Below are positions 20,761-39,499 of a stretch of 64,000 nucleotides of DNA, one piece after another. Origin of the DNA: Desulfoglaeba alkanexedens ALDC (GTDB taxonomy: Bacteria > Desulfobacterota > Syntrophobacteria > Syntrophobacterales > DSM-9756); assembly GCF_005377625.1 (NCBI RefSeq), contig NZ_CP040098.1, forward strand, positions 2,531,279 through 2,595,278, written 5' to 3'. A model generated the notes under the pieces. It saw only the letters and a list, made by a program, of their open reading frames with translations. It was not told where the DNA came from and made no database searches. Made by a program: the position numbers and the translations under genes. The first letter of the stretch is position 1, and each line of letters starts with the position of its first letter.

Positions 20761-20945
20761 CGAAGGGCCGCTCCAAGGAGAAAACAGGCCACCGAACACC
20801 AGGAACGCGTTCGTGGCCTCAATCACTTGTTGCAAGGCACGTACATGTGCGTCGCGCTTCCCAAAAACCCCCATGACCCCGCGGGGTCACAACGAAGCAT
20901 GAAAATATTGTGAATTGTGGGTTCGACCACGAATATAAAAAGTTT

Positions 20946-21154
20946 GGTAGCGTAAAAAAACAATAGAGTTAATATCTGATGCCAAATTCTATTTCCCCTC
21001 CCTTTGTGGGAGGGGATTAAGGGGAGGGGAATGTAACTGATTGACATGCATTAATTTTATCACCCTCACCCCAACCCTCTCCCATCAAGGGAGAGGGGGA
21101 CTTTTTGACCTTCGTTATCCTTTTTGTTTAAGGTCTCCACTTTAGAACGCTACC
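20946..21154. mobile_element. MITE-like element, copy A, with perfect 8-bp target duplication
   Basis: A 209-bp non-coding element with ends GGTAGCG and CGCTACC, flanked on both sides by AAAAGTTT (20938-20945 and 21155-21162). The interior carries the G/C-rich inverted segments shared with the copies at 25441 and 39104. It encodes no protein, so it would be moved in trans by a transposase not seen in this window. Confidence 0.8.
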
Positions 21155-21162
21155 AAAAGTTT

Positions 21163-21736
21163 ATGATAGCTGGCATGCTCAACATACCGGAATCACTTTA
21201 ATAACTGGTTATTTTCATATAAACGTTCCCGCAGCTTTCCCTTAGGAAGGGGCGGGAACAACGTGATCCGCCCTGGATATTCCATATAACAGTCGGGCCG
21301 CCGAAGCGGGATCGGAGCGCCATCGAACCGCGGCGTACGGGACAGAATAATGTTCTATAGAAATTCGGCAACTGGAAAATACCCTTCACCCTTCGGGGGA
21401 TTGGGTATCCGTTTTTTTTCGCGTAGGGGCGGTTTAGGAGCCGGCGATCCTAATCGCGGCCAAGGCCGCTCCTAGTGCGCCCATTGTGGGAGCGGCGCCC
21501 CCTTGCGCCGCGATGAACCAACCCGGATGCCCCACTATACCCATCGGTCCGAGGGCGGGCCCAGTACCACCGACCTGTGGGAGCGGCGCCCCCTCGCCGC
21601 GATGAACCAACGTGATGGGGCTTGACACGCGCCTTGATGCCGGGGATTCTTGGCTGAAACGTTCCGCCGAGATCGGAACGGCCGGATACCCACGGCCTTT
21701 TGCGTTTAACCCGTCGCCGCAGGAGGAATCGCCGTT
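21163..21736. repeat. Gene-free region with composite repeats
   Basis: No gene. It holds the 50-bp unit (AAAATACCCTTCACCCTTC, about 21377-21425) followed by several short GC-rich palindromes of the GGAGCGGCGCCCCCTTGCG type (21435-21605). The last 20 bases contain the AGGAGG ribosome site of apbE. Confidence 0.6.
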
Positions 21737-22819
21737 TTGGTCAGGCTCGTATCTGCATTCCGTTTCCCGCGTCGGTTCGCCCTGCCCGCAGGGTTTACGG
21801 CGGCCGCGCTGGCCGTTCTTTTCGCCTTTGCCGGATGCTTCGTCCGGGAAACTGTTTTCCGGAACACGCGCCCGCTCATGGGAACGCTGGTGGAAATCGC
21901 CGTGGTCCAGCGCGATGAGGCGCGAGCCTACGCCGCCCTTCGCGACGCCTTTTCCGAAATGGAACGGATCGAAGGGGTGATGAGCGCTCACAGGGAAGAC
22001 AGCGAGCTTTCGCGGCTGAACCGCGAAGGCTACCCGGGGCCGGTGGCGGTGAGCCCGGAGCTGTTCGAAATCGTTCAGAAGGGGATCGAATGGTCCCGGA
22101 ATACGCAGGGCGCCTTCGACATTTCGGTTGGGCCGCTCCTCAAGCTCTGGCCGCTCTACCGGGCCGAAAAGATCCTTCCGACCGATGACGCCGTCGCGGA
22201 AGCGCTCCAAGCGGTGGGGTGGCAAAAGGTGCTTCTGGATTCGGGCGGGCAAACCATCGGCTTTCGGGTACCGGGCATGGCGCTCGATCTCGGCGGGATC
22301 GCCAAGGGCTATGCCATCGACCGGGCCGTCCAGGAACTGAGGGAAGCGGGAATTCGGAGTGCCCTGGTGAATGCCGGCGGCGATCTCTATGCCATGGGGC
22401 GGAAGCCGGACGGGTCGGCGTGGCGGGTCGGCGTGCAGCACCCGCGCCGCAAAGGAGAACTCATCGCCGTCTTGGAAGCGCAGGACGTGGCGGTTGTGAC
22501 GTCCGGCGACTACGAACGGTATTTCCTGAAAGACGGGCGCCGCTACAGCCACATCGTGGATCCCCGGACGGGTTTCACCGCCCGGGGGACCGCCTCGGTC
22601 ACCGTGGTCGGCCCCAATGCCACCGACGCCGACGCCCTGGCGACCGGTGTCCTGGTGCTCGGCCCGGAAGAAGGCCTCCGTCTGGTGGAGACCCTGCCCG
22701 GCTTCGAAGTCGCGATCCTTTCCGAAGCTGCAGAAGGAAGCGGACTCAAGTTCACCGCCTCCAGCGGATTCCGCCGCTACTTCCGCGTCGACGAAGCCTT
22801 CGATGACCGGGTTCCGTGA
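21737..22819 (+). CDS. apbE: FAD:protein FMN transferase, lipoprotein
   Basis: ApbE covalently attaches FMN to Thr residues of exported flavoproteins such as NqrB/NqrC and RnfD/RnfG. TTG 21737 follows AGGAGG at ten bases and opens a lipoprotein signal whose lipobox is FAGC (Cys near residue 33), so the enzyme would be anchored on the periplasmic face. Core motifs RPLMGTLVEI, GAFDISVGPLLKLW, ALDLGGIAKGYAID, NAGGDLYAMG and SHIVDPRTG are in order, ending with DADALATGVLVLG. The 360 residues are normal for the family. No flavoprotein partner is nearby. Confidence 0.93.
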   Translation: MVRLVSAFRFPRRFALPAGFTAAALAVLFAFAGCFVRETVFRNTRPLMGTLVEIAVVQRDEARAYAALRDAFSEMERIEGVMSAHREDSELSRLNREGYPGPVAVSPELFEIVQKGIEWSRNTQGAFDISVGPLLKLWPLYRAEKILPTDDAVAEALQAVGWQKVLLDSGGQTIGFRVPGMALDLGGIAKGYAIDRAVQELREAGIRSALVNAGGDLYAMGRKPDGSAWRVGVQHPRRKGELIAVLEAQDVAVVTSGDYERYFLKDGRRYSHIVDPRTGFTARGTASVTVVGPNATDADALATGVLVLGPEEGLRLVETLPGFEVAILSEAAEGSGLKFTASSGFRRYFRVDEAFDDRVP

Positions 22820-23078
22820 TTGGGGACCCGGGTCCTCAAGAGCGGCAGCGCGCTTGGGTGCACGGCGTTCAACGGGCGCCGCTCCTGCAACGACTCATGC
22901 CCTGTAGGGGCGCAGCGGCGCTGCGCCCCGGCTTGCCGGCGATCCGGGTCAACGGGGCGTTGCCGGTTTTCCCCTCGTTCCCAAGCTCTGGCTTGGGAAC
23001 GGCCTCACCGAAGCTGGAGCTTCTGCACAGTTGTGTTCCCAAGCTGGAGCTTGGGAACAAGAAGCAAAGATCTGCACC
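22820..23078. repeat. Composite dispersed repeats after apbE
   Basis: No gene. There is a GTAGGGGCGCAGCGGC-type palindrome near 22905, then two copies of the dispersed palindrome (22979-23000 and 23036-23057) with the usual spacer. The block ends at the stop codon of the convergent gene. Confidence 0.65.
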
Positions 23079-24026
23079 CTACCGGAATGCCCCTTTCCTG
23101 AATAGTCTCCAGAAGGTGACACATACCGCCAATGCGGGCAAACGACGCAAGGATGGGCCGGGTTCAATGCGGACGCCCGAGTGCCGCTCGATTTTCCAAA
23201 GGACGTAATCCAGACCGTTGTCAAAGGTAAGGGGAGCCTTGAGGAGTCTCAGGGCGGAGAGCACCTTGCCCTGTACCTTGCGCAGGTGCCAGCCAAGACG
23301 GTTGAGATATTTTTCCCTCCAGGGAATCAGGGTACGATAAGTGCCGGGGGCCCGGCCGGCAACGGGTTCGACGGGAAGCTCCCAGGCTTTCAGAGCCTCA
23401 ACCGTAGCTGCTTCATAATAGTCCGGAGCGGCGTCATAGAGGCCAACCGCGGTGCCCGGTTTTTCCGACCGGAGCTCACAGCGATAGCTCAGGCTCAGCC
23501 CGATACCCCAAAGTTCGCGGGACGTGAAGATTTGCGGAACCTGGGGCAGGGCGCGACGCACAAAGGTATAAAGAGCACGAGCCAAGGAATCCTGAACCTG
23601 CCCGAAGGCTTCCGCGTCGCGGGCGTAAACCAGGGCGGAAGGCTGGGCAAAGCGCCCCCAGATATAGGAATGAAACCACGTGGCGGTTCCTTTGGCAAAA
23701 TCGTCGAGGGTCAGAACGGCGTACTTGGCCCGCAGGGTTCGTTCCCCATAGGGAAGCTCCAGGTAAAAGACGTTCGGCGGCAGCAGGCGATTCATCCATG
23801 CCTGCAATCGCGAATGTAACGCCACCTTATAATCGTCGACCAGCAGGTAAAGATCGGCCATCCCTTGATCCACGCGGCCGCTGCGCAGGCAGGACCCATA
23901 GAAAAGCACGGCGGCCACCCCGTCGTGCCGTCGCCTGGCGGCATCGGACAACGCGGTGATCTCCGGCGGCAGCGCGCGCGTGTTCCAATGCTGGATGATT
24001 TTTTTTACGTTTGCGTCGCTCTTCAT
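23079..24026 (-). CDS. Nucleotidyltransferase-fold protein of unknown function
   Basis: Hypothetical protein of 315 residues. Near residues 38-60 VAAVLFYGSCLRSGRVDQGMA followed by DLYLLVDD fits a nucleotidyltransferase-fold active site (GS, then a spaced acidic pair), the pattern of minimal nucleotidyltransferases. The remainder is helical with a basic C-terminus (LGWHLRKVQGKVLSALRLLK). ATG 24026 has AAGGA five bases upstream. It follows the CDP-alcohol phosphotransferase gene on the same strand by 140 bases, so a role in making or attaching the polar head group is a reasonable inference. The donor and acceptor are unknown. Confidence 0.65.
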   Translation of the reverse strand: MKSDANVKKIIQHWNTRALPPEITALSDAARRRHDGVAAVLFYGSCLRSGRVDQGMADLYLLVDDYKVALHSRLQAWMNRLLPPNVFYLELPYGERTLRAKYAVLTLDDFAKGTATWFHSYIWGRFAQPSALVYARDAEAFGQVQDSLARALYTFVRRALPQVPQIFTSRELWGIGLSLSYRCELRSEKPGTAVGLYDAAPDYYEAATVEALKAWELPVEPVAGRAPGTYRTLIPWREKYLNRLGWHLRKVQGKVLSALRLLKAPLTFDNGLDYVLWKIERHSGVRIEPGPSLRRLPALAVCVTFWRLFRKGAFR

Positions 24027-24166
24027 GGGGATCCTTGGCCTCGCCGGCTCAGATTCTCAGAAACCGGGCCGGCCTCTTACTTCAGCTCCGGGGGGAGCGT
24101 GACCATGCCGATGGTCACGGCACCGGGCATGGTCCATGGAGCCTGGCTGTCCGTGGATTTCCCCGT

Positions 24167-25366
24167 TTACAGGCGGTTGTTCGAAAAGCATCGTTGGGCA
24201 AGAGTCGGATTTTTTTCGTCGGGGTCGATCTCAAGAAACCAGGACCTCAGGGGGCCCTTGACGATCCGGAAGGCAAAACCGGTTGCCAGCCGCACCACCA
24301 GGAACATGCTGGAAATGACCGTCCACAAGGCAACCGCCACCAGCCCCAGGTCCGGCCGTCCGGCAATGAGCCCCAGGGTGAGAAGGATCAGGTTGGGATT
24401 GCGCCGCCCCGTTATCAGGCGGAAATAGGAATCGATGGGCCGCCAGCAGAAAATCCCCGAAGGCTCCAGGCATTTCTTGAAGATACCTTCAACCATGCGG
24501 CCGGCAATGTAGCCGATGAAGATCATCCAGAAGGTGTCCACCAGGGAAAGAGGCATTCCCGGATCCCAGCTTGTCAGTCCAAGACCCCAGAGAAGGTACC
24601 ACAAGGGGGGCGAGATCAGATCGATGGCATGGTCGAAAATGTGCCCGAAGCGGCTGGAATTGACGGTGACCCGCGCAAGCTTGCCGTCGACGGTATCGAG
24701 GAAGGTCATCGCCCAGGCGGCGGCGAGGCCGAGAGCGAAGTGGCCATGGTAGAAGAGGAAACCGGCGACGATGACCAGAACCAGGCTCAGAGAGGTTACC
24801 ATATTGGGGGTGATGCCTCTGTCGGCACAGAAGCGGGTCACCGCCTGCGCAGGCCTGGGCCAGAGCCATTTTGTCACCAGATCGGTAACTCCCTTGTACG
24901 ACCCGGAAAACAGGCGTCGTTCCAGAGTTTCCCTGTTCTTCTCGGTAATGGGCAGGAGATAAGGGGGGTCGATCTTGCGCAACTGCTTCATGTATGTCGG
25001 CGCAAGGGTCTGAGGGGTCTCGAATGAAAGGGACGGAGGCAACGCGCTGCCGGGCTTCCCCTCCAGCACATCGCGAACGAGGGGAGCATCGGCCGCCGCC
25101 ACGTGGGCGGCGACAGGCTTGCTCCCCGCTTCCGTGGCAGTCCGGAGAACGGTTCCGGGTTTCCGGACCAGGTTCCCGATGAGACGCTCATCATAGAGAT
25201 AATCGCCTCGCAGGAGCAGGACCGAATCTTCACTGGAGACGGATTCGAGGTCGTCAATCATACTGGTGACATTCATCTTTTTCAGGATACGCTCTAGACG
25301 CCGGCGGCTGGAAAGGCCCCACAACCGGATGGGGGTCTCCGCAAAGATTAACGCATGTACGGTCAT
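24167..25366 (-). CDS. CDP-alcohol phosphotransferase with degenerate nucleotidyltransferase-like N-domain
   Basis: Integral membrane enzyme that transfers a phospho-alcohol from a CDP-linked donor to a lipid or polyol acceptor. Residues about 170-385 form the CDP-alcohol phosphatidyltransferase domain, with the full signature D224-TVDG-KLAR ... G241 ... D245 ... D249 and several membrane helices. The first 150 residues resemble a sugar-nucleotidyltransferase fold, but the glycine/arginine loop is missing (starts ALIFAETPIRLWGLSSRRR). This two-domain plan recalls the inositol-phosphate cytidylyltransferase/DIPP synthase fusions, here with a probably inactive N-domain. It is first in a minus-strand pair with the nucleotidyltransferase-fold gene. 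Confidence 0.82.
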   Translation of the reverse strand: MTVHALIFAETPIRLWGLSSRRRLERILKKMNVTSMIDDLESVSSEDSVLLLRGDYLYDERLIGNLVRKPGTVLRTATEAGSKPVAAHVAAADAPLVRDVLEGKPGSALPPSLSFETPQTLAPTYMKQLRKIDPPYLLPITEKNRETLERRLFSGSYKGVTDLVTKWLWPRPAQAVTRFCADRGITPNMVTSLSLVLVIVAGFLFYHGHFALGLAAAWAMTFLDTVDGKLARVTVNSSRFGHIFDHAIDLISPPLWYLLWGLGLTSWDPGMPLSLVDTFWMIFIGYIAGRMVEGIFKKCLEPSGIFCWRPIDSYFRLITGRRNPNLILLTLGLIAGRPDLGLVAVALWTVISSMFLVVRLATGFAFRIVKGPLRSWFLEIDPDEKNPTLAQRCFSNNRL

Positions 25367-25440
25367 TGTTGTGCTCTCGGAAAAATATTAGTATCTACGG
25401 CCACAATCGGAGCCGATATAAAAAAGCAAAATAATATTTT

Positions 25441-25588
25441 GGTAGTGTTCTAAAGTGGAGACCTTAAGCAAAAAGGATAACGAAAGTCAAAAAATCCCCC
25501 TCTCCCCCCTCCCCTTAATCCCCTCCCACAAGGGGAGGGGAAATAGACTTTAGCATCAAATATTAGGTCTATTATTTTCTACGCTACC
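25441..25588. mobile_element. MITE-like element, copy B
   Basis: A 148-bp copy in the opposite orientation to copy A, with ends GGTAGTG and CGCTACC, flanked by AATATTTT (25433-25440) and AATATTTC (25589-25596), seven of eight bases identical. It lies just upstream of the CDP-alcohol phosphotransferase start, so it may have altered that gene's promoter. Confidence 0.75.
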
Positions 25589-25710
25589 AATATTTCGATA
25601 CTTGCAATCACGATCAACCGACTTTGCCAACACTCTAGCAGATTGCCGGGCCGACGGCAAGGAAAACGGCCTGGGGCCGGCCTGGGGGGTCAGGGGAGGT
25701 TGATATACAG

Positions 25711-26168
<458 letters not shown>

Positions 26169-26214
26169 TAAAAACAACCCGATGGCATAAATCCAACCCG
26201 TGAGTGATCGGATC

Positions 26215-27285
26215 ATGGAGGATACGATTCACGCCATTCACACCATTCACACCATTCACACCGGAAGATTCAACCATGCGGGGTGTTTGAACACAGATGA
26301 TCCCGAATGGCTTGCCGGCGCGACGAGGCCCCGTATCGGGGTCATCAGCAATCCATTAAGCGGTGGGAACCGAAAAGGGTTTCAGTCTGTAGAGCGGATC
26401 CTTTCCAGCTACCGGCAGGTCTTTCACCGAAAGGCCGTTGATCCCGAACAAGTGACGGCGGCGGTACGAGATTTCGCTTGCCGTGGCGTGGATCTCCTGG
26501 TGGTGAACGGGGGCGATGGGACCATTCATGCGGTCTTGACCGCCCTGTTTACTACCAGATGGCCACATCGGTTGCCGGTGTTGGCGCTCCTGCGTGCGGG
26601 GACGGCCAGCATGATTGCCAGAGACGTGGGGCTGAGGGGTTCACGGTTACGGGCCTTGTCTCGGCTTCTGGATTGGGCCTCTTCCGGGTGTGGTGCGCCG
26701 TCCATTGTAGAACGGCCGGTCTTGCGCTTAGAAGGGGCGGTCGGCGCTCAGCCCATATACGGAATGTTTTTCGGCGCCGGCGGGATTTATCAGGGGATCG
26801 AATTTTGCCTGAATCGGATACACCGGGCGGGCGTGCGGGGTGAACTGGCGGCAGGGCTTACCTTGGGCCGGTTCTTATTGGCCGCCGTCGGCGATGACAA
26901 GCGAACTATCCCACCGGCCGCCATTCGAATGAGCCTGGACGGCATGGCGATGCGGCCCATAAATGCCCTGGTCATCCTTGCCACCACTCTGGAGCGTCTG
27001 TTTCTGGGAATTCGTCCCTACTGGGGCAGCGAATCCGGCCCCTTGCACTTTACCGTAGTTCGCTCCGATGCAGAACATCTCCTTCGGGCGATTCCATCCC
27101 TGATCAGGGGTCGAAGGAGTCGGCTGGGAAGCCCTGACCGCGGGTACATAAGCCATAACGTTCGCGAGATTAGGCTTCTCATGCAAAGCGGTTTCACACT
27201 TGACGGCCAACTGTACCTGCCCGACCCTCAGCGTGGAGAGCTGTCGCTCAGAAGTGGAGGGCAAATAAAATGCTTCAGATTATGA
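26215..27285 (+). CDS. Diacylglycerol/ceramide kinase-like lipid kinase
   Basis: Lipid kinase of the DAGK catalytic family, about 356 residues. The nucleotide-binding motif VNGGDGTIHAVL is at about 97-108, preceded by ISNPLSGGNRKG near 45, and the later FFGAGGIYQGIEF fits the second domain. The family includes diacylglycerol, sphingosine and ceramide kinases, so in this locus ceramide is an attractive substrate (inference). The start is uncertain: ATG 26215 lacks a good ribosome site and the first codons are a 9-bp tandem repeat (IHAIHTIHTIHT), so translation may begin downstream, for example at the TTG just before NTDDPEWL. Confidence 0.75.
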   Translation: MEDTIHAIHTIHTIHTGRFNHAGCLNTDDPEWLAGATRPRIGVISNPLSGGNRKGFQSVERILSSYRQVFHRKAVDPEQVTAAVRDFACRGVDLLVVNGGDGTIHAVLTALFTTRWPHRLPVLALLRAGTASMIARDVGLRGSRLRALSRLLDWASSGCGAPSIVERPVLRLEGAVGAQPIYGMFFGAGGIYQGIEFCLNRIHRAGVRGELAAGLTLGRFLLAAVGDDKRTIPPAAIRMSLDGMAMRPINALVILATTLERLFLGIRPYWGSESGPLHFTVVRSDAEHLLRAIPSLIRGRRSRLGSPDRGYISHNVREIRLLMQSGFTLDGQLYLPDPQRGELSLRSGGQIKCFRL

Positions 27286-27311
27286 AAACTCCATGACCGA
27301 GCCGTCCTGCT

Positions 27312-28526
27312 TTATGGATTATTCTTGGGGACGGTTTGCAAAAACACACCAAATCGGTTCATTTCTTCGAGCCGACAACTCCAGACAAGCTTGCCCTCGT
27401 GAACGGTGATATCCGGGCAACCATCGCACATGTCCTGCCGTCCGTCCGGTTCGAAGTTTACGGGTTGGATGATCATGAAGCTCTGAAGGTGGGCCGGGCG
27501 GAACATGGTCGCCGGCTTGGAGATGATCTCCTTCATTATATTGACCAGGGCCTTCCTCATTTTTCGATCCACAAGCCCGAAAAGCGAGGCAAGTTTCCCC
27601 CGCGCCATGCTTTTGGGAGTGGCGTAAGACAAGTAAGTGCCCGTAAAGATATGGTTGAAGGTCTGGATCAACTCCATGAGCTTGGGAGACATGTACCCCA
27701 TGACCTTCCCATTGAAAACGATTCGGTTGGCCAAAAGCCACTTAAGAGAATCCGGATTAGCGGTCCCGTTCAAGTAGGCCGCTGGTTCATACGCAGGGTC
27801 CGCTTTTCGGATCATTTCCACGGCATCTTCCGCCATCAGCGGCTTCGCCCCTCCCCACTCGCTTTCATGGTACATGAGGCTCGGATCGACTTTTTGACCT
27901 CGGGCATAGAAATCGAAATCCCCTGTCAGATTGGGAGATCGATAAAGAATAAACACCATGGTATGGACGATATCAGCGTGTTCTTGAGCCCAACGCACCA
28001 TATTGGGTATTTCCGGAAGTGTCTTCTCCGATATCGTGGCATTGAAGGAACAGGCGATCCCGCCGGCCTTGGCCAGCATACTTGCGTAATGATACCGCAG
28101 GTCATTCAGCTCCGTTTCTGTTGTCGCATTTACGTTGGGTCGATCCTGGCTCGTATCGATATGGAAGGTGAAACCGAAGACCCCCGCTTTCTTGAGGTCC
28201 TTCAATAGAGATTCCGTGAGTGCAACTCCATTCGTGTTCACAATGGGCTTCCAACCCATTTCCTTGACCATTCTTACCGTTTCGACAATATGAGGGTAGA
28301 CGAGAGGGTCACCTCCGGCGATACTCATGCAGTCGCTTTTTCTCAATCTTCGGAAGACTTCCAGGTCGGAACGGACTTCCTCCAGAGACCTATGGCCTTT
28401 CGGGTCTCTGTAACATCCCTTACATCTCAGATTGCATAGACTGGTCGGCTCCAGCCAGGAAATGCCATTATCCGCGTAATTCCACGGAAGCCTGTAGTAC
28501 TCAAGATGATTCAGTTTAAAGGCCAT
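27312..28526 (-). CDS. Radical SAM enzyme in the lipid locus
   Basis: Radical S-adenosylmethionine enzyme, 404 residues. The cluster motif C31-NLR-C35-KG-C38 is canonical, followed by the SAM-binding strand MSIAGGDPL and VNTNGVAL. Near the C-terminus MCDGCPD and WSCRLEE give three further Cys for a possible auxiliary cluster. It superficially recalls HpnH-like lipid enzymes and radical SAM proteins working on lipid substrates, but the reaction cannot be predicted. It is single, convergent with the lipid kinase gene (26 bases apart). A lipid-modification role is inferred from context. Confidence 0.82.
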   Translation of the reverse strand: MAFKLNHLEYYRLPWNYADNGISWLEPTSLCNLRCKGCYRDPKGHRSLEEVRSDLEVFRRLRKSDCMSIAGGDPLVYPHIVETVRMVKEMGWKPIVNTNGVALTESLLKDLKKAGVFGFTFHIDTSQDRPNVNATTETELNDLRYHYASMLAKAGGIACSFNATISEKTLPEIPNMVRWAQEHADIVHTMVFILYRSPNLTGDFDFYARGQKVDPSLMYHESEWGGAKPLMAEDAVEMIRKADPAYEPAAYLNGTANPDSLKWLLANRIVFNGKVMGYMSPKLMELIQTFNHIFTGTYLSYATPKSMARGKLASLFGLVDRKMRKALVNIMKEIISKPATMFRPAHLQSFMIIQPVNFEPDGRQDMCDGCPDITVHEGKLVWSCRLEEMNRFGVFLQTVPKNNP

Positions 28527-29241
28527 ATTTTATAACTTTCTTTATTTGTTTTGCAGATGCAGGAGCATAGCGAAGTAACATCTCAATAACCACGGGTAAC
28601 CCGTCTGGATTCCGGCCTTCACCGGAATAATGGAAGGCTGGCTTGTTTCGTCATTCCGGCCTTCGCCTAAATCCAGAAAGGATGTGGTATCACCCAGGTT
28701 TATTGGGTCAATACATAGCAAGAAGTTCCTTATGTGTCAAGGCCAATCCGGCCGGCTTTTTCTCTATTATGGCACCAAATTTAATACAAGGCGACTCTTG
28801 ATCTATAGCTCAAGTTGGTCTAGTTATAGGCAACAGTTTGGTCACACTTCTTTCCGACGGACTCAACCTTGTTCCCAAGCTCCAGCTTGGGAACACAACT
28901 GTGCAGAAGCTCCAGCTTCGATTCCCATGAGGTCGTTCCCAAGCCGGAGCTTGGGAACGAGGGGAAGCCGGCTCCTACAGGGGATCGGCCCGGTTTTCCG
29001 CCAAGGGGATCGGCCCGGTGTTCCGTCAAGGGGCCGGCCTGATTTTGCGTTGTCGGCCCGGGTTTTCCGTTATCGGTAGGAGCGGGCTTGCCCGCGACCC
29101 GTAAAACCGGCAATGCCGCGTTCATTCTGATCGCCGGCAAGCCGGCTCCTACGGGGCAAGCGTCTCCTAGGAACATAGGGATGTAGGGGCGCAGCGCCGC
29201 TGCGCCCCTACGCGAAAAACGGACACCCCATCCCCAGAAGG
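28527..29241. repeat. Gene-free region packed with dispersed repeats
   Basis: No gene. It begins with short CCGGCCTTCACCGGAAT-type palindromes (28605-28675). Two dispersed palindromes with spacer follow (28872-28893 and 28936-28957), then a palindromic pair of the GTAGGAGCGGGCTTGCC / GGCAAGCCGGCTCCTAC type (29074-29152). It ends with GTAGGGGCGCAGCGCC and the inverted 50-bp unit that runs into the next gene. Confidence 0.65.
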
Positions 29242-30213: not shown

Positions 30214-30240
30214 CGAATCCTCCGCAAGCCGGTTCTCGTT

Positions 30241-31306: not shown

Positions 31307-32421
31307 GACAAGGGCTCCCCACGGATCAAGGAGCGGCGCCCCAAAAGACGGCTCAAGGGATTGCGTCCCGGAAGCATGATCAGAACGAGAACGCCGAGAA
31401 GGGCCGTCACCCACCATATGCCGGGCACGGCGCCGACCACCTGTTCTTCGACCCAGGTCTTGGCTATCAGGTTGAAGTTGTAAAAAACAAAAAATAACAC
31501 GATGGCCAAGGTCACTTTGCCGTATTTGTCGCGCCGCGGGGCAACCCGGCTCAGGGGGATCGCCAAGAGGGCCAGCAGGACGGTGGAAATGCCCGTAGAA
31601 AGCCGCCATTGTAACTCCGCCACATCTTCCGGCTCCGGCGATCGGGCCAGATGCAGAGTTGATGCGGCCTTGCGGCGATATTCGGCGGGAGGGGTCCGGT
31701 CGGTATCGAGCCGGAATACGTTTTCACTGAAGTGGATCATGAGATCGCCTTCCGTCTTCTGATTCAGCACGTAGTGGTAGCCATCCCGGAAAACGATGAC
31801 CTTCTGTCCCTCTCCCGGACCATTGATCTGGTGGGCGTTGCGGGCCGTTGTCACCTTCCGGCTGTCCGATTCCAACTCCCATACCCAGACTTTTACGGCC
31901 CGGTTCTCCGCCGGATCAAGCTTTTCGGCAAAAAAGACCACTTCTTCGCCCAACTCGTAAAACCGGCCGGCCTCAACCTTGGCGATGTCGAATTCCTCTT
32001 TCCCTTTGGCTTCCAGGGCATAAATTTTCTCATAAGCCCAGGGACGGACGAAGAGTGAAAGAGAGGCAACCACGAGGCCAAGGAAAAGTGCCAGGGACAA
32101 AACCGAGATGACGATTCGCCCCGGACCCACGCCGCATGCCTCCATGGCCGTAATCTCGCTGTCGGCATGCATGCGGCTTAAGGCAACCACCACCGCGAGA
32201 TAAAGCGTAACCGGAAGAAGTACTTCAAGGGCTATGAGCACCTTGAGCCCAACCAGGGCGACAACCGTTTCGCCGGAAAGGAGGCCGTTGACCGCATCGT
32301 TAAGAAAGCGGACGGCGCTGTAACCGGCGAAAATCATGGTCAAAACCGCGCAGACCTCCACCATCCGGGCCGTAATTTCCCGTACGATATAGCGCTCCAG
32401 AATCAAAACGGCTCCAAACAC
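31303..32421 (-). CDS. lptF: LptF-like permease
   Basis: LptF-family membrane protein of 372 residues, partner of LptG in extracting lipopolysaccharide from the inner membrane together with the ATPase LptB. It begins with LILERYIVREI and has three N-terminal helices. The soluble periplasmic domain (about 130-270; YELGEEVVFFAEKLD, VIVFRDGYHYVL) is followed by three C-terminal helices (VLLALLAIPLSRVAPR ... KTWVEEQVVG). It is the first gene of an lptF-lptG operon divergent from the nucleotidyltransferase gene. Its placement among sphingolipid genes raises the possibility of a sphingolipid cargo. No lptB, lptC or lptA is in the window. Confidence 0.88.
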   Translation of the reverse strand: MFGAVLILERYIVREITARMVEVCAVLTMIFAGYSAVRFLNDAVNGLLSGETVVALVGLKVLIALEVLLPVTLYLAVVVALSRMHADSEITAMEACGVGPGRIVISVLSLALFLGLVVASLSLFVRPWAYEKIYALEAKGKEEFDIAKVEAGRFYELGEEVVFFAEKLDPAENRAVKVWVWELESDSRKVTTARNAHQINGPGEGQKVIVFRDGYHYVLNQKTEGDLMIHFSENVFRLDTDRTPPAEYRRKAASTLHLARSPEPEDVAELQWRLSTGISTVLLALLAIPLSRVAPRRDKYGKVTLAIVLFFVFYNFNLIAKTWVEEQVVGAVPGIWWVTALLGVLVLIMLPGRNPLSRLLGRRSLIRGEPLS

Positions 32422-32495
32422 TTCACTCGACTACTTTCCTTTCATGCTCGCTTTTCGCCCAAAGGCGATCCGCTCCCAAATCCGCTGAAATTGCC

Positions 32496-32524
32496 TTGAC
32501 GTTTACCGGTATTTTCGCTAGATT
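32496..32524 (+). promoter_or_regulatory. Sigma-70-like promoter for the ceramide-synthesis gene run
   Basis: TTGACG (32496-32501) and TAGATT (32519-32524) with 17-base spacing, 84 bases before the nucleotidyltransferase start, in the divergent gap with lptF. It is the only good promoter I see before the plus-strand run. Confidence 0.55.
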
Positions 32525-32607
32525 GGTAGCGTTATCGATAACATACTAAAACGGCATCCGGCAAGAGATGGTCGGTTATGGAAAGACGGAGAGGAGAATG
32601 AAGCAGC

Positions 32608-33366
32608 ATGAAAGCCATCATTCTCAGCGCAGGGCAAGGGAAGAGACTGCTTCCCTATACCGCTGAACGTCCCAAATGTATCGTTCCCATTCATGGTCGG
32701 GCCATGGTTGAATGGCAGATCGACGAACTGATCAAGTGCGGCGTCGAAGACATCTGCGTCGTGTTGGGCTACGGGGCCGACAAGGTCGAGCAACAGCTCA
32801 AGGACCGGTACGGACAAGGCGGTGTACGCACCCTTTTCAATCCCTTCTACTCCGTCGGTGACAACCTGAGCACCTGCTGGATCGCCCGTTCCGAGATGAC
32901 GGAGGATTTCATCCTCCTGAACGGTGACACCCTCTTTCAGGCCCCTGTCATGGAAACCCTCCTTGCCTCCGAGCGGCATCCAATAACGGTAACCATCGAT
33001 CGCAAAAACAGCTATGACGGCGATGACATGAAGGTCGTTCTGGATGGCGAGCGCCTGCTACGCATCGGCAAGGACCTCCCCCTCGACCAGGTTTGTGCCG
33101 AGTCGATCGGCATGCTGCTGTTCCGCGGAGAGGGGCCGGAGCTGTTCCGGCAAGCGGTGGAAGATGTCATGCGCCATCCCGCCGCCCTCAAGCGCTGGTA
33201 TCTGTCCGTTATCGACGAACTGGCCCGAAAGACGCCCGTCTGGACCTGCTGCATTGAAGGGTTGCTCTGGTGCGAGGTCGACTGCCCCGCAGACCTGAAA
33301 CATGCCGAAAAGGTGGTGCGCGCCATCGCGGATAGACAGGCCGGCGACATGCGCGGAGCGGTATAA
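32608..33366 (+). CDS. Nucleotidyltransferase of the NTP-transferase family (LicC/cytidylyltransferase-like)
   Basis: Sugar- or alcohol-phosphate nucleotidyltransferase of 252 residues. The signature loop ILSAGQGKRLLPYTAERPKC is complete (Gly-rich loop, Arg, Lys) and LLNGDTLF carries the metal-binding Asp. It most resembles small cytidylyltransferases activating phosphocholine, inositol-phosphate or glycerol-phosphate, which would supply the CDP-alcohol for the phosphotransferase at 24-25 kb (inference). ATG 32608 follows GAGGAG. It opens the long plus-strand run leading to spt. Confidence 0.82.
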   Translation: MKAIILSAGQGKRLLPYTAERPKCIVPIHGRAMVEWQIDELIKCGVEDICVVLGYGADKVEQQLKDRYGQGGVRTLFNPFYSVGDNLSTCWIARSEMTEDFILLNGDTLFQAPVMETLLASERHPITVTIDRKNSYDGDDMKVVLDGERLLRIGKDLPLDQVCAESIGMLLFRGEGPELFRQAVEDVMRHPAALKRWYLSVIDELARKTPVWTCCIEGLLWCEVDCPADLKHAEKVVRAIADRQAGDMRGAV

Positions 33367-33814
33367 GAGGTTGTCTGAGGGTATCCGTCATCCAATTGCG
33401 GATGGGTGCGGATCTTTTAGAACGACATCCAGGGTGAACCTCTGACGTAGATCCGGATGGCCTTGAAGCAGCAAGCGCATCAGGTCCGTTTCCCCTCGTT
33501 CCCAAGCTCCAGCTTGGGAACGCCCTGCCCGGGAAGCTCCAGCTTCCCTCGTGCTACAGCTGAAACGCGCTGTCTTTCTAGGGAGCTCGCCAGGATCTCG
33601 AAGTGGTCTTTCCCCTCGTCCCCAAGCTCCAGCTTGGGAACGGCCCCATGGGAATCGAAGCTGGAGCTTCTGCACAGCTGTGTTCCCAAGCTGGAGCTTG
33701 GGAACAAGAAAAAAGATCGCTGTCCCGGTTCGGTGAAATAAATTGAGAAAACGGTTGCGGGCCATGACCGGAGCGGCTCCTACGGACTCCCAAGTAAAGT
33801 ATTCCCGGATACCC
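33367..33814. repeat. Composite repeats before the ceramide synthase gene
   Basis: No gene. It holds a 40-bp unit around GATCTTTTAGAACGACATCC (also near 48575, inverted), three dispersed palindromes (33499-33520, 33619-33640, 33683-33704), and between them the unit with ACAGCTGAAACGCGCTGTC that recurs near 17840, 39335 and 47805. Confidence 0.65.
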
Positions 33815-34996
33815 ATGACCACCCGACCCCATGAATCGGCAACGGCCGAAAAGGACACTCCTTCAACTGGCTGGCTGGAAATCCTGCCGGTAGGCGACAG
33901 GGCTGCACGCCGTGAATTTTTGCATCTTCCCGGATCGCTGTATGCCCATGACCCGGCCTGGATTCCTCCCCTGCTCCTCGAATGCAGGCGGCATTTTTCA
34001 AAGAACAATCCCTATTTCAGACACGCCACGTTTCAGGCGTGGATCGCCAGGCGCGGAAAGAAAACCGTCGGACGCATCAGCGCCCAGGTGGACCGGCTCC
34101 ATCTGGAGCGATACGACGACCATACCGGTTTTTTCGGAATGCTGGAAGCGCAGGATGATCCGGAGGTCTTTCAAGCCCTTTTCGATACCGCTCAAGCCTG
34201 GCTGCGCGAATGGGGCATGAAACGCATCCGGGGGCCCTTCAACCTTTCGATCAATCAGGAATGCGGCTTGCTCGTCGAAGGCTTCGACACTCCCCCTGTC
34301 ATTATGATGGGGCATGCCCTTCCTTATTATTCCCGGCGTATCGAAGAACAGGGGTTTACCGCTGAGCAGGATCTCTTGGCCTATCGCATCGGGTCGGACT
34401 TTGCCGCGCCCCGTCATCTTGATGCGCTGAGCTCACGCGTTGCCGGACGGGTACGCCTGCGAACGATGCGTCGCCGGGAATTCATGGAAGACCTGGCAAT
34501 CCTCAAGGACATCTTCGAAGATGCCTGGGCCGATAACTGGGGCTTCCTGCCATTTACCGCAGAGGAGTTCAACGATCTGGGAAAAAGCCTCAAGCTCCTC
34601 GTGCCGACCGACTTTGTCCGTATCGCCGAAGTTGACGGCGAACCGGCGGCGATGATGGTGGTTTTCCCCAATCTCAACGAAGCGATCAGGGATCTGGACG
34701 GCAGGCTGTTCCCCCTGGGCTGGCTCAAATTGCTCTGGCGGCTCAAGGTGAGCGGCGTGAAAACCGGCCGTGTTCCGCTGATGGGAGTTCGGCGGCGTTA
34801 TCAAGGAAGCTATCTCGGGGCCATCCTGGCTCTGCTGCTGATAACGTCGCTACAGGATTCGGCGCGCCGCCGCGGCCTGGAAGAAGTAGAGACGTCCTGG
34901 ATACTTGAGGACAACATCGGAATGCGCACGATCATCGAATCGATCGGCGGGAAGTGCTACAAACGGTATCGCATTTACCGCAAGGACCTCGCTTGA
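33815..34996 (+). CDS. bcerS: Bacterial ceramide synthase-like GNAT-family acyltransferase
   Basis: Matches my recollection of the GNAT-like N-acyltransferase family that includes the Caulobacter ceramide synthase, which acylates the amine of 3-oxosphinganine. Key stretches are HLPGSLYAHDPAWIPPLL, a FSKNNPYFRHATFQAWIARR segment, the VGRISAQVDRLH strand, GFFGMLEAQDD, and the late acetyl-CoA-type region GVRRRYQGSYLGAILALL. About 393 residues, with no signal or membrane segment. ATG 33815 is the last good start before homology; the ribosome site is weak, and ATG 33764 is an alternative. The last 60 bases of the gene are duplicated downstream. Position next to spt, acpR, cerR and aasR supports the call. 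Confidence 0.8.
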   Translation: MTTRPHESATAEKDTPSTGWLEILPVGDRAARREFLHLPGSLYAHDPAWIPPLLLECRRHFSKNNPYFRHATFQAWIARRGKKTVGRISAQVDRLHLERYDDHTGFFGMLEAQDDPEVFQALFDTAQAWLREWGMKRIRGPFNLSINQECGLLVEGFDTPPVIMMGHALPYYSRRIEEQGFTAEQDLLAYRIGSDFAAPRHLDALSSRVAGRVRLRTMRRREFMEDLAILKDIFEDAWADNWGFLPFTAEEFNDLGKSLKLLVPTDFVRIAEVDGEPAAMMVVFPNLNEAIRDLDGRLFPLGWLKLLWRLKVSGVKTGRVPLMGVRRRYQGSYLGAILALLLITSLQDSARRRGLEEVETSWILEDNIGMRTIIESIGGKCYKRYRIYRKDLA

Positions 34997-35176
34997 GTGA
35001 TAGATCCGCTATTCCAGCTTGTTCCCAAGCTCCAGCTTGGGAACACAACGGTGCAGAAGCTCCAGCTTCGATTCCCATGAGGCCGTTCCCAAGCCAGAGC
35101 TTAGGAACGAGGGGAAAGTGCTACAAACGCTATCGCATTTACGGCAAGGACCTCGCTTGAGTGATAGATCCGCTGA
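34951..35176. repeat. Duplicated gene end flanking a palindrome pair
   Basis: The last codons of the ceramide synthase gene plus 14 bases of downstream DNA (34951-35012) recur at 35114-35175 with a few changes (both read GTGCTACAAACG ... CTCGCTTGAGTGATAGATCC). Between the two copies sit two dispersed palindromes (35022-35043 and the degenerate 35086-35107). The repeat pair therefore lies inside a target duplication of about 62 bp. Confidence 0.85.
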
Positions 35177-35177
35177 C

Positions 35178-35987
35178 ATGAACCCTGTTCCCGCATCGTT
35201 TGCCGCCGTTGTTCTCGCCGGCGACCGCGGCGCCGAAGACCCCCTCGTCAAGGCGGCCGGCGTCAGTTGCAAAGCGCTGGTTCCCGTTGCCGGGCGGCCC
35301 ATGATACTGCGCGTGCTCGATGCCCTCGAAAGTGCGGCTGCCATAGATTCATGCCTTGTATGCGGCTCCTCGGACCGCCTCCTGGGCAAATGCTCTGAAC
35401 TCGATGCCCGGATCGCTTCCGGAAAGGTTCGCTGGGTCGAAAACCAAGCATCGCCCAGCCGTAGCGCCCAAGCGGCTCTGGGCGAGCTGCCGCCCGACCG
35501 GCCGGTGTTGCTGGCCACGGCGGATCACGCACTCCTCACGCCGCAGATGGTCGATCATTTCTGCACCCGAGCCGCCCAATCGGGATGCGACGTCGTTGCC
35601 GGGCTCGCTCACGCCGAGATGGTGGCGGCAGCCTTTCCCGAAAGCCGCCGGACCGTAACGCGCCTTCGCGATGGCGGATACTGCGGATGCAACCTCTTTG
35701 CGTTGCTCACGCCCCGGGCCGGCAATGCGGTAACCTTCTGGCGGCGGGTCGAAAAGCAGCGAAAGCACCCCCTTAGAATCGTAAAATCACTTGGGTTGAT
35801 GGCTGTCCTGCGCTATCTTCTCGGCCGCTTGACCCTTGAAGAGGGATTGGCCCGCATGTCGTCCGTGATGGATGCCCGCGCCGGCGTGGTCTGGATGCCC
35901 GAGGCGGAAGCGGCGGTGGACGTCGACAAGGTCGAGGACTGGGTTCTTACGGAGAAGATCCTCTGTCTTCTCAATCGGAGTGACTGA
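35178..35987 (+). CDS. MobA-like nucleotidyltransferase
   Basis: NTP-transferase fold protein of 269 residues with a variant loop: FAAVVLAGDRGAEDPLVK, then CKALVPVAGRPMILRVLDAL, and ATADHALLTPQMVDHF for the metal Asp. MobA, GlmU and CDP-ribitol/choline-type enzymes share this layout. The C-terminal third (VKSLGLMAVLRYLLGRLTL ... VDVDKVEDWVL) resembles other small lipid-locus nucleotidyltransferases. ATG 35178 begins directly after the duplicated ceramide synthase tail. Together with the enzyme at 32608 it suggests two distinct activated head-group precursors, or one active and one accessory enzyme. Confidence 0.75.
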   Translation: MNPVPASFAAVVLAGDRGAEDPLVKAAGVSCKALVPVAGRPMILRVLDALESAAAIDSCLVCGSSDRLLGKCSELDARIASGKVRWVENQASPSRSAQAALGELPPDRPVLLATADHALLTPQMVDHFCTRAAQSGCDVVAGLAHAEMVAAAFPESRRTVTRLRDGGYCGCNLFALLTPRAGNAVTFWRRVEKQRKHPLRIVKSLGLMAVLRYLLGRLTLEEGLARMSSVMDARAGVVWMPEAEAAVDVDKVEDWVLTEKILCLLNRSD

Positions 35988-36282
35988 TTTTTTGCAGCAA
36001 AGTAATGGATTCCGGCTCCCGGATCGGGGTCTGGGACAGGTTTCGCCGGAATAACGGTAGGTTGGGTTGTTTCGTCATACCGGCGAGAGCCGGAATCCGG
36101 AAGGTTTGCCCCTGATGATTGAAATGTTACAAAATCCTTTCAGAGCACCGAGAAAGTGTGGTAGAAAAGCGTCCTCATAAAATTGAAGCTGTGCAATGAT
36201 GCAAAAAATGTGCTGTGTCGCCGGGATCTCCTACGGAGACAAGGCAAAGGCCGGGCAGAGTGGTTCTATGAAGGAACTTGAA
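35988..36282. repeat. Short intergenic repeat region
   Basis: It contains palindromic CCGGAATCC / GGATTCCGG units (36006-36105) related to those near 28610. No gene or clear promoter is seen. Confidence 0.5.
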
Positions 36283-38034
36283 ATGACGCCGACCGAAAAC
36301 TCCATCGCCTTGCGTCAAGGCGATTTTCAGACTCTGGCCGAGGCCCTCGATTATGCAGCCGAAGGCACGACGGGGATCAATTTCTATTCCGGGAAAGGGG
36401 CGCTTGAAGCCTCTCTCTCCTATGCGCAGTTGCGAGACGGTGCCCGGTCGCTGGCGCGCAAGCTCCTGGGGCTCGGCCTCGAGCGGGGCGAGCGGATGGC
36501 TCTGGTCGCCGATACCGATGCCGATTTTGTGCGCTTTTTCTTTGCCTGCCAGTATGCCGGACTGGTTCCCGTCCCGCTTCCCGCGGCTGTACATCTAGGC
36601 GGCCGCCAGGCCGTTATCGCCAATTTACGGAAACTACTGGTGTCCTGCGGAGCCAAGGCCGCAATGAGTTCCAGCTCTTTTTACCCCTTTCTGGCTGATG
36701 CCGCTGACGGTCTGAATCTGGTCCATGTCGGGGAACCAGCCGGCTTCGACGCCCTCCCGGAGACGGATTTGCCGCTGCAACATGCTCGTCCCGATGAAGT
36801 CGCCTACCTGCAATACACTTCGGGCAGCACCCGTTTCCCGCGCGGGGTTGTGATCACGCAGAAAGCGGTCATGGCCAACCTGAAAGGGATCATCCGCAAC
36901 GGGCTCGGTGTCCGCCCCGGAGACAGGTGCCTCTCATGGCTCCCCCTCTACCACGATATGGGGCTTGTGGGCTTTCTTCTCGCGCCGATGGCTTCGCAGC
37001 TTTCCATCGACTACCTGAGGACGCGGGATTTCGCCATGCGTCCGCGGCTCTGGCCGGCATTGATTTCCAAGAACCGCGCCACAATCTCCTACAGCCCCAC
37101 CTTCGGATACGCCCTATGTGCGCGGCGCATCCGCCCCACTGAAATCGAATCGTACGATCTGAGTTCCTGGCGCATTGCCGGGATCGGTGCCGAGCCCATC
37201 CGTCCGGATATCCTCGAACATTTCGCCCGGCTGCTGGAACCGGCCGGTTTCCATTCCCGGGCCTTTGTCGCCTCGTACGGCCTGGCGGAATGTTCCCTTG
37301 CCGTCAGCTTCGCCCCCCTGGGCGAAGGCCTGGTGATCGATCGCATAAGTGCCGAGACTCTTGCGAAAAACGGAAAAGCCATTCCCGTTGAAGATAGTAA
37401 AAACAATGGAAAGACGAGAGAACTCGTCTTCTGTGGCGCACCACTTCCCGGGCACGAGATCGAGATCCGCGACGAGTGGGGGAGGGTCCTGCCCGAGCGG
37501 CGCTGCGGGGTGCTGCATGTGCGCGGACCCAGCGTCATGAGCGGATACTTCGGCGACCGGGAATCCACAAAGGAAGTCCTGTCTCCCGACGGTTGGCTCA
37601 ATACCGGAGACCTCGCCTATCTGGCCGGCGGCCAGGTGATCATCACCGGCCGCAAAAAAGACATGATCATCATCAACGGCCGGAATATATGGCCGCAGGA
37701 TATTGAATGCATAGCCGAGCAGATGCCGGGAATCCGCTCGCGGGACGCTGTCGCATTTTCCATCGGCGAGGTAGGAGAAGACGAGACCGTAGTTCTGGTC
37801 GTTCAGTGCCGTCAGTTCGACGGGACGGAACGCGACCGCCTTGTGCAGGCCCTGCGCGGTCGCGTCAGGGAAGAATTCGGCATCGATTGCATGGTCGAGC
37901 TCGTCCCCCCGCACACCCTGCCGCAAACGTCATCCGGCAAGATATCAAGAACCGTGGCGCGGGCCGATTTCCTCCGGCGGAACCAGCATCTGTTCTCAGC
38001 CCCCCTGCAGTGTGTCGGCCGAACCGGGAGCTAG
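36283..38034 (+). CDS. aasR: Fatty acyl-AMP ligase / acyl-ACP synthetase of the ceramide pathway
   Basis: AMP-forming acyl ligase of the FAAL type, about 583 residues. AMP-binding motifs are YLQYTSGSTRFPRGVVIT, WLPLYHDMGLVG (a FAAL/long-chain hallmark), SYGLAECSLAVSF, and TGDLAYLAGGQVIITGRKKDMIIINGRNIWPQD, with the catalytic Lys in TSSGKISRT near the end. In the Caulobacter pathway such an enzyme charges the dedicated acyl carrier protein. ATG 36283 is preferred (AAGGA seven bases before); ATG 36268 and 36196 are in frame. The stop lies five bases before the next gene's ATG. Confidence 0.85.
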   Translation: MTPTENSIALRQGDFQTLAEALDYAAEGTTGINFYSGKGALEASLSYAQLRDGARSLARKLLGLGLERGERMALVADTDADFVRFFFACQYAGLVPVPLPAAVHLGGRQAVIANLRKLLVSCGAKAAMSSSSFYPFLADAADGLNLVHVGEPAGFDALPETDLPLQHARPDEVAYLQYTSGSTRFPRGVVITQKAVMANLKGIIRNGLGVRPGDRCLSWLPLYHDMGLVGFLLAPMASQLSIDYLRTRDFAMRPRLWPALISKNRATISYSPTFGYALCARRIRPTEIESYDLSSWRIAGIGAEPIRPDILEHFARLLEPAGFHSRAFVASYGLAECSLAVSFAPLGEGLVIDRISAETLAKNGKAIPVEDSKNNGKTRELVFCGAPLPGHEIEIRDEWGRVLPERRCGVLHVRGPSVMSGYFGDRESTKEVLSPDGWLNTGDLAYLAGGQVIITGRKKDMIIINGRNIWPQDIECIAEQMPGIRSRDAVAFSIGEVGEDETVVLVVQCRQFDGTERDRLVQALRGRVREEFGIDCMVELVPPHTLPQTSSGKISRTVARADFLRRNQHLFSAPLQCVGRTGS

Positions 38035-38038
38035 GGGC

Positions 38039-39007
38039 ATGGTTGAACCCGTACGGGAGTCGCGCACTGATGCCGCGCCCGCTCACGTCACAACCGTCGC
38101 CATGACCGGTGGGACCGGCTTCATCGGCAAATCCCTCATTCATCGCTTCCTGCGGGAAAATATTCGTGTCAGGGCGCTGGTACGCCCGGCCTCCATATCG
38201 TCGTGCTTCAACGCGCCGGGGTTGTCATGGATTCATGGCGAGTTGAACCATGAGGAGAGCCTCAGGCAACTTCTCGACGGGGCCTCGGCCGTTATTTATT
38301 GTGCCGGATCCGTTCGCGGCGCATCGATGTCCGACTTTGTGCCGGCCAACGTTTCCGGAGTGGCAAAGATCGTACACATGATGCGGAATTCGGTGGATTC
38401 TCCGCGCTTTCTTCTGATCTCCTCTCTGGCTGCAAGATCGCCGGAACTTTCGCACTATGCCGCAAGCAAGCGGCAAGGGGAAGAGGTCCTGCGCAGCGCG
38501 GCGGACGGGCTCGACTGGACGATCATCCGGCCGCCGGCGGTGTATGGCCCTGGAGATCGCGAAATGCTTTCCTTGTTGCAATGGCTCCGGCGGGGAATCG
38601 CCATTGTCCCGGCAGGTGGGCGAGGGCGCTTTTCGCTGATTTTCATCGACGACCTTGCGGAGGCGGTCCTGAGCTGGCTGGTGGGCGGCGCCGGCAGTGG
38701 CGGCTGCTTTGAGCTGCACGACGGCAAGGCGGGAGGGTACTGCTGGGAAGAGGTCTGTGAAATAGCCTCTGAGCTCTACCGGCGTCCCGTGAGACGTGTC
38801 GATGTTCCGCGGATCGCCCTGGATGCCGTGGCCCATGTCAACCTGGCCCTTTCCCGTCTCGCCGGATACCTGCCGATGCTGACGCCGGGCAAGGTCAGAG
38901 AACTGTGCCATGAAGACTGGGTCTGCGATCATTCGGATTTCAGCCGCGTCACCCGCTGGGCTCCGGAAGTCGGCCTGCGCGAAGGGTTGCTTCGTACGCT
39001 CGGGTGA
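38039..39007 (+). CDS. cerR: NAD-dependent epimerase-like ceramide reductase
   Basis: Extended short-chain dehydrogenase, 322 residues. The Rossmann motif TGGTGFIGKSL begins near residue 23, the YxxxK pair is in HYAASKRQGEE, and the preceding Ser is in LLISSLAARS. In Caulobacter the equivalent gene beside spt is proposed to reduce the 3-oxo group after ceramide formation. The start overlaps a GGGAG ribosome site just after the acyl ligase stop, so the two are translationally coupled. The MITE at 39104 follows and separates it from the acyl carrier protein gene. Confidence 0.82.
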   Translation: MVEPVRESRTDAAPAHVTTVAMTGGTGFIGKSLIHRFLRENIRVRALVRPASISSCFNAPGLSWIHGELNHEESLRQLLDGASAVIYCAGSVRGASMSDFVPANVSGVAKIVHMMRNSVDSPRFLLISSLAARSPELSHYAASKRQGEEVLRSAADGLDWTIIRPPAVYGPGDREMLSLLQWLRRGIAIVPAGGRGRFSLIFIDDLAEAVLSWLVGGAGSGGCFELHDGKAGGYCWEEVCEIASELYRRPVRRVDVPRIALDAVAHVNLALSRLAGYLPMLTPGKVRELCHEDWVCDHSDFSRVTRWAPEVGLREGLLRTLG

Positions 39008-39103
39008 CGAGTTCATCAAGCTCATTGCGGCGAGGGCGCCGCTCCTACAGGAACAAGAAACCGCAGGCCCGACTTTTATGAGCTTGTTTTCGGACAAGCT
39101 CTT

Positions 39104-39472
39104 GGTAGCGTTCTAAAGTGGAGACCTTAAGCAAGAAGGTTAACGAAAGTCAAAAAAAGCCCCCTCTCCCTTGATGGGAGAGGGTTGGGGTGAGGGTGGG
39201 AAAATTGCTTCTTGTTCCCAAGCTCCAGCTTGGGAACACAACTGTGCAGAAGCTCCAGCTTCGGTGAGCCCGTTCCCAAGCCAGAGCCGGGGAACGAGGG
39301 GTAAGACCACTTCGAGATCGTGGCGAGATCCCTAGAAAGACAGCGCGTTTCAGCTGTATCAGGAGGGAAGCTGGAGCTTCCCGGGCAGGGCGTTCCCAAG
39401 CTGGAGCTTGGGAACGAGGGGAAACGTTAGAATTTGGCATCAAATATTAGGTCTATTATTTTCTACGCTACC
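39104..39472. mobile_element. MITE-like element, copy C, with nested palindromes
   Basis: Ends GGTAGCG and CGCTACC, flanked by perfect 8-bp duplications AAGCTCTT (39096-39103 and 39473-39480). The interior (about 39205-39425) holds three dispersed palindromes and the AGACAGCGCGTTTC unit, so a composite repeat inserted into the MITE and lengthened it to 369 bp. It sits between cerR and acpR, within the presumed operon. Confidence 0.85.
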
Positions 39473-39499
39473 AAGCTCTTAATGCAGAGGAACGAAGCT

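What the first reader, a model, noticed from the sequence alone, without database searches (positions are those of the whole stretch)
20938..39480. MITE-like family with GGTAGCG ends and 8-bp target duplications
Three copies (20946-21154, 25441-25588, 39104-39472) share ends GGTAGCG/CGCTACC. Their flanks are AAAAGTTT/AAAAGTTT, AATATTTT/AATATTTC and AAGCTCTT/AAGCTCTT. They carry no gene. Truncated core pieces occur near 2566-2676, 43670, 47665 and 55871. The duplications show genuine transposition, so an autonomous element with these ends should exist in the genome.
Basis: seen in the sequence. Interest (0 to 1): 0.68.

Follow-up and report, generated by a model that had tools for sequence, protein, structure and literature searches.

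The report
Orphan ISH6-type miniature transposons, swappable cores
The three repeats are real miniature jumping elements, part of a family of about 40 complete copies in this bacterium; their ends and insertion footprint match the little-known ISH6 family of transposons, whose enzyme gene was not found in this genome, and their insides are interchangeable G-rich blocks.

Summary
Observation confirmed. The three window elements (209, 148 and 369 bp) are bounded by GGTAGYG/CGCTACC and 8-bp duplications (two exact, one with one mismatch). The whole genome (one 3.37-Mb contig) holds 39 complete copies examined; 16 have exact and 30 have <=1-mismatch 8-bp duplications, against 4% for swapped flanks. 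The target is AANNNNTT.

Interpretation partly right. It is a MITE family, but no autonomous copy with these ends was found in this genome. The source is most likely an ISH6-family insertion sequence (Mutator superfamily). ISH6 elements from the same phylum match the MITE left end at 14-16 of 23 positions. A marine MAG carries broken-off IS ends matching the MITE ends at 19-21 of 23, with AATTTTTT duplications and an ISH6-like C-terminal peptide (weak hit). ISH6 is reported to duplicate AANATNTT. A profile search found no ISH6 transposase here, so the family looks orphaned.

Extra: the ends are constant but the interior is modular. The same two G-rich hairpin blocks occur in class relatives between unrelated inverted repeats, and two copies use a foreign second end. 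This is a new member of a known kind, with one unusual feature.

The parts
20938..20945 (.). 8-bp target duplication AAAAGTTT, copy 1
20946..21154 (-). MITE copy 1, 209 bp (left end at 21154); blocks M2 + M1
21155..21162 (.). 8-bp target duplication AAAAGTTT, copy 1
25433..25440 (.). 8-bp target duplication AATATTTT, copy 2
25441..25588 (+). MITE copy 2, 148-bp class; block M1 only
25589..25596 (.). 8-bp target duplication AATATTTC (1 mismatch), copy 2
39096..39103 (.). 8-bp target duplication AAGCTCTT, copy 3
39104..39472 (+). MITE copy 3, 369 bp, composite: ISH6-type ends, block M2 and about 220 bp of the GTTCCCAAGC repeat family (about 39205-39426)
39473..39480 (.). 8-bp target duplication AAGCTCTT, copy 3
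2564..2676 (-). MITE fragment: left end (GGCAGCG at 2676) and M1 block, right end replaced by a GGTGCAGATCTTTTGC repeat; left flank AAAGATTT at 2677-2684
43670..43714 (-). isolated M1 block (no MITE ends) next to GTTCCCAAGC palindromes
47666..47728 (-). isolated M1 block (no MITE ends) between GTTCCCAAGC palindromes
55871..55911 (-). MITE interior fragment directly abutting the right end of an IS256-family element

Best explanation
A MITE family of about 40 complete copies, derived from an ISH6-family insertion sequence (p-MULT 2, Mutator superfamily). An ISH6-type transposase supplied in trans binds the 23-26 bp imperfect ends (GGTAGCGTTCTAAAGTGGAGACC and GGTAGCGTAGAAAATAATAGACC), cuts them out or copies them, and joins them to 8-bp staggered cuts at AANNNNTT sites; repair leaves the 8-bp duplications. 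The interior is not needed for movement, so it changes freely (148-bp class with block M1, 208-bp class with M2+M1, composites up to 668 bp with pieces of another repeat). Shown: the ends, the copies, the duplications, the target motif, the similarity to ISH6 ends, and that no ISH6 transposase was found here. Inferred: mobilisation in trans, and that the source element was lost from this lineage or never belonged to it.
For: 39 complete copies; 30 with <=1-mismatch 8-bp duplications; the octamer begins AA and ends TT (34-37 and 33-36 of 39 per position). ISH6 transposase genes over the curated cut-off occur in the same phylum: L164 lies between GGCAACGTTCATAAGTTGTGGCA and AGTAACGTTCATAAGTTGTGGCA with exact AACTTTTT duplications; L165 and L163 have GGTAACGTTCAAAAG; degenerate L169 starts GGTAGCGTTCAGAAT. 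These match the MITE left end at 14-16 of 23; only 27 of about 128,000 window 23-mers reach 14, and that count includes the family's own ends. A marine-rock MAG has two broken IS copies: end A GGTAGCGTAGAAAATAGGAGACC (21/23 to the right end), end B GGTAGCGTTGTCAACAGGAGACC (19/23 to the left end), flanks consistent with AATTTTTT duplications, and a C-terminal peptide that hits NCBIfam transpos_ISH6 at 385-405 of 414, E 0.035. Published ISH6 duplication consensus AANATNTT, with a bacterial member ISDesp5 in Desulfobacterium (PMC3942029).
Against: No complete autonomous element with exactly these ends was recovered; the MAG element is known only from 139 bp at each end, and its peptide hit is weak (E 0.035). 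The right end is less like complete ISH6 ends (11-14 of 23) than the left. ISH6 and IS256 are related, and a local IS256 shares the terminal GGTRGTGT, so the first 8 bp alone do not decide. The genome is 97% complete by the tool's estimate, so a missing transposase gene is not fully excluded.
Confidence: 0.85

Rival explanations
1. The MITEs are mobilised by the resident IS256-family element (window 54496-55870 and a second copy near genome 2288100-2289500), whose ends begin GGTAGTGT / GGTGGTGT.
For: Resident, nearly identical copies with an intact 412-aa transposase; the terminal 8 bp match at 7 of 8; IS256 elements also duplicate about 8 bp (general knowledge).
Against: Beyond 8 bp the IS256 ends match the MITE ends at only 8-11 of 23, background level, whereas ISH6 ends reach 14-16 on the left end. 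The IS256 copies lack AANNNNTT duplications (7-bp TAAATCT at one, none at the other), and IS256 insertion is reported to be without motif (PMC3942029).
Confidence: 0.07
2. The source is an IS6, IS1595 or other 8-bp-duplicating IS family.
For: Those families also duplicate 8 bp and have terminal GG motifs (general knowledge).
Against: No IS6 transposase over cut-off and no IS1595 transposase in the genome; the ends fit ISH6 better and AANNNNTT is the reported ISH6 target.
Confidence: 0.05
3. The copies are REP/BIME-like palindromic repeats spread by a RAYT (Y1) transposase or by recombination, and the duplications are incidental.
For: Interior blocks are palindromic, occur alone, and the genome has Y1 transposases.
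Against: 8-bp duplications at 30 of 39 copies against 4% by chance and conserved 23-bp ends; the flanks of the Y1 transposase copies that were read show no M1 or M2 blocks next to the gene.
Confidence: 0.03

Closest known systems
ISH6 family (p-MULT 2), e.g. ISH6 of Halobacterium and ISDesp5 of uncultured Desulfobacterium (PMC3942029)
   Same: Terminal GGTAACGTTC/GGTAGCGTTC, 8-bp duplication at AANNNNTT, host phylum includes ISH6 elements
   Different: No transposase gene; 145-668 bp instead of about 1.4-1.5 kb; composite interiors; the ends of ISDesp5 itself could not be read here
Chunjie MITE of Geobacter uraniireducens (as described in the review PMC10969869)
   Same: Same kind of object: MITE of 178-235 bp with conserved inverted repeats and duplications, 38 such copies and 57 partial ones, variable size
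   Different: Its sequence could not be read here (original paper not held), so relatedness is untested
REP/BIME palindromic repeats
   Same: Interior blocks M1, M2 and the GTTCCCAAGC palindrome are short hairpins present outside the MITEs too
   Different: The mobile unit here has DDE-type ends and 8-bp duplications, which REPs lack
TIMEs, Tn3-derived miniature elements (PMC4133298)
   Same: Mosaic non-autonomous elements moved in trans
   Different: Tn3-type ends and 5-bp duplications (general knowledge); unrelated ends

Membership tests
MITE (non-autonomous DNA transposon) | Short, no transposase, conserved terminal inverted repeats, many copies | tested here: met
   39 complete copies, 145-668 bp, 23-26 bp ends
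MITE (non-autonomous DNA transposon) | Target-site duplications | tested here: met
   30 of 39 with <=1 mismatch at 8 bp, 4% for swapped flanks
MITE (non-autonomous DNA transposon) | Shares ends with an autonomous element | tested here: inconclusive
   Not in own genome; ISH6-like IS ends in another MAG match, but only 139 bp of each end is held
ISH6 family derivative | ISH6-type termini | tested here: met
   14-16 of 23 positions between the left end and ends of ISH6 elements L163-L165, L169; right end weaker, 11-14
ISH6 family derivative | 8-bp duplication with AANATNTT consensus | tested here: met
   AANNNNTT at 8 bp; consensus from PMC3942029; the central AT is not clearly enriched
ISH6 family derivative | Encodes, or is moved by, an ISH6 transposase | not testable with these tools
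   No transposase inside; none found in the genome; mobilisation needs an experiment
IS256 family derivative | IS256-type ends of the resident element (terminal 8 bp plus inner TTTTGTGTAAAT motif) | tested here: not met
   8-11 of 23 matches; inner motif absent
IS1595 or IS6 family derivative | Corresponding transposase in the genome | tested here: not met

The most novel reading that the evidence does not exclude
The G-rich M2-M1 double-hairpin core is itself a portable unit that moves between MITE families with unrelated ends, and ISH6-type transposition helps to swap ends by using foreign or cryptic GG-starting ends. Support: the same bipartite core lies between different inverted repeats in class relatives (for example a perfect TTAGTGTCCATTCGGAAA repeat in L127), and two copies combine one ISH6-type end with a foreign end and an exact 8-bp duplication (1608016, AAAACCTT; 1484538, CAAAAATT).
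Probability: 0.3. Interest if true: 0.55.

Novelty: new member of a known kind. Interest (0 to 1): 0.36.

Why it matters
ISH6 is a small family known mainly from salt-loving archaea, and the papers that could be read here mention no ISH6-derived MITE. A family of about 40 copies without a resident transposase is a clean case of an orphaned MITE. If the core-swapping reading holds, it would show how one short hairpin core can be spread by several unrelated transposases.

Tried and rejected
IS6 as source, suggested by a resemblance of the first 17 bp: no IS6 transposase over the cut-off. IS1595: none. IS256: only the first 8 bp agree. The long left-right pairs of 2416, 5338 and 7152 bp: no matching duplication, so chance neighbours. 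The ISKra4-like gene at 1704861 (my reading of its sequence): no matching ends nearby. Viral contigs: no elements with these ends. Plasmids with the C-terminal peptide: no match. Class relatives carry only the interior core, not the ends. G-quadruplex motifs: interior blocks fit the consensus in most copies, but the window as a whole has hardly more such motifs than shuffled sequence (9 against a mean of 6.4), so nothing is built on this.

Full report
What was checked. The three elements stand at the stated coordinates with the stated flanks; the left end of the second is GGTAGTG rather than GGTAGCG. The heptamer alone would be thin evidence (11 in the window against 4.9 expected), but the conserved ends run to 22-26 bp.

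The family in the genome. The window is part of one 3.37-Mb contig. Searching it with the left-end 22-mer and right-end 26-mer, three mismatches allowed, gave 69 and 65 places, none for the reversed controls. Pairing them gives two sharp length classes, 145-148 and 208-210 bp, and composites up to 668 bp. Of 39 complete copies, 16 have exact 8-bp duplications and 30 have at most one mismatch; swapped flanks give 0.8% and 4.1%. The duplicated octamer is AANNNNTT. Copies in the main classes are on average 92-93% identical, so most insertions are not recent (inference).

No autonomous copy here. A consensus of both ends found no further end type among the places listed at zero or one mismatch. 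The only long left-right pairs (2.4, 5.3 and 7.2 kb) lack matching duplications, and unpaired ends yielded no gene-bearing element with a convincing duplication. Profile searches found no IS1595, no IS6 over its cut-off, and under the ISH6 profile only the known IS256 copies and an ISKra4-like gene.

What it derives from. A scan of bacterial genomes for the ends gave three contigs. In one marine-rock MAG, four contigs stop 139 bp inside an IS: two at end A (GGTAGCGTAGAAAATAGGAGACC, followed by an ORF start) and two at end B (GGTAGCGTTGTCAACAGGAGACC, with an ORF end). Their flanks fit two insertions with AATTTTTT duplications. The short C-terminal peptide hits the NCBIfam ISH6 transposase at its C-terminus, weakly (E 0.035). 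A phylum-wide search then found true ISH6 genes. L164 lies between GGCAACGTTCATAAGTTG and AGTAACGTTCATAAGTTG with an exact AACTTTTT duplication, and L163, L165 and the degenerate L169 have GGTAACGTTC or GGTAGCGTTC ends. These ends match the MITE left end at 14-16 of 23 positions; IS256 ends match it at 8-9, which is background. The published study of Mutator-type transposases in prokaryotes (PMC3942029) reports AANATNTT as the ISH6 duplication, also for a bacterial member in Desulfobacterium. A Deltaproteobacterial MAG has two further short elements with the same ends, flanked by AAAGATTT and AAATGATT duplications.

Interior. The ends are constant, the interior is not. Block M1 (CCCCTCCCCTTAATCCCCTCCCACAAGGGGAGGGG) is in nearly all copies, block M2 (CCCTCTCCCTTGATGGGAGAGGGTTGGGGTGAGGGTG) in the 208-bp class, and pieces of a GTTCCCAAGC palindrome family in the composites, including the 39104 copy. 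In class relatives the whole element is absent, but the core is present. In five of seven loci inspected M2 and M1 lie in the same order by pattern match, in a sixth by eye, and around some of them there are quite different inverted repeats, perfect over at least 18 bp in L127. The AT-rich spacer between the blocks is not significantly alike, except marginally in L127.

Foreign ends. Two copies have one normal end and an exact 8-bp duplication beyond a foreign end: a left end paired with GGATGCAGATCTTTTGC (genome 1608016, AAAACCTT) and a right end paired with GGTGGGGAGGGG from the core (1484538, CAAAAATT). By a simple estimate (49 ends, about 840 positions each, 1 in 65,536 for the octamer and 1 in 16 for the terminal GG), about 0.04 such cases are expected by chance; AT-rich flanks raise this somewhat. 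A third (1123562) has one mismatch and could be chance. The GGGTGC(A/G)GATCTTTT repeat that lends the first foreign end looks like a second MITE family: both complete copies seen have exact 9-bp duplications.

Verdict. An ordinary kind of object, newly tied to a little-sampled IS family, in a genome where the transposase was not found, with an unusual modular interior that deserves a survey of its own.

Noticed in passing
window 33404 (+) and 48608 (-); genome 332670-332809 and 1318333-1318657: A second MITE-like family with ends GGGTGC(A/G)GATCTTTT; both complete copies found have exact 9-bp duplications (ATGCGCGTT, ATCAAATAT), one of them inserted inside an ISH6-type MITE.
   Followed up: partly
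window 54496-55870 (transposase 54603-55841): IS256-family element with ends GGTGGTGT/GGTAGTGT...TTTTGTGTAAATTC, nearly identical to a second copy near genome 2288100-2289500; the window copy abuts MITE material and the other lies next to a MITE left end.
   Followed up: partly
L122-L128 (other genomes of the class): The M2-M1 G-rich double-hairpin core recurs between different inverted repeats, e.g. perfect TTAGTGTCCATTCGGAAA in L127.
   Followed up: partly
genome 4400-13500 against 3343400-3352300: The contig ends overlap (99.8% identical over 8.9 kb, 16 gaps; offset 3,338,828), so it looks like an untrimmed circular chromosome of about 3.34 Mb.
   Followed up: yes
genome 3362532-3362891 against about 23704: A Y1 transposase in the end overlap has no listed twin at the corresponding start position, so the two ends may differ by one insertion.
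   Followed up: no
window 50170-53994: 1274-aa protein with an N-terminal SIR2-like domain (PF13289), of the kind seen in anti-phage systems, flanked by 90% identical 108-bp repeats at 50002 and 54203.
   Followed up: no
L063 (genome 93839, 95520, 103531): Three right ends share the same flank tctcaaAATCCATT, suggesting a duplicated larger segment containing MITE ends.
   Followed up: no
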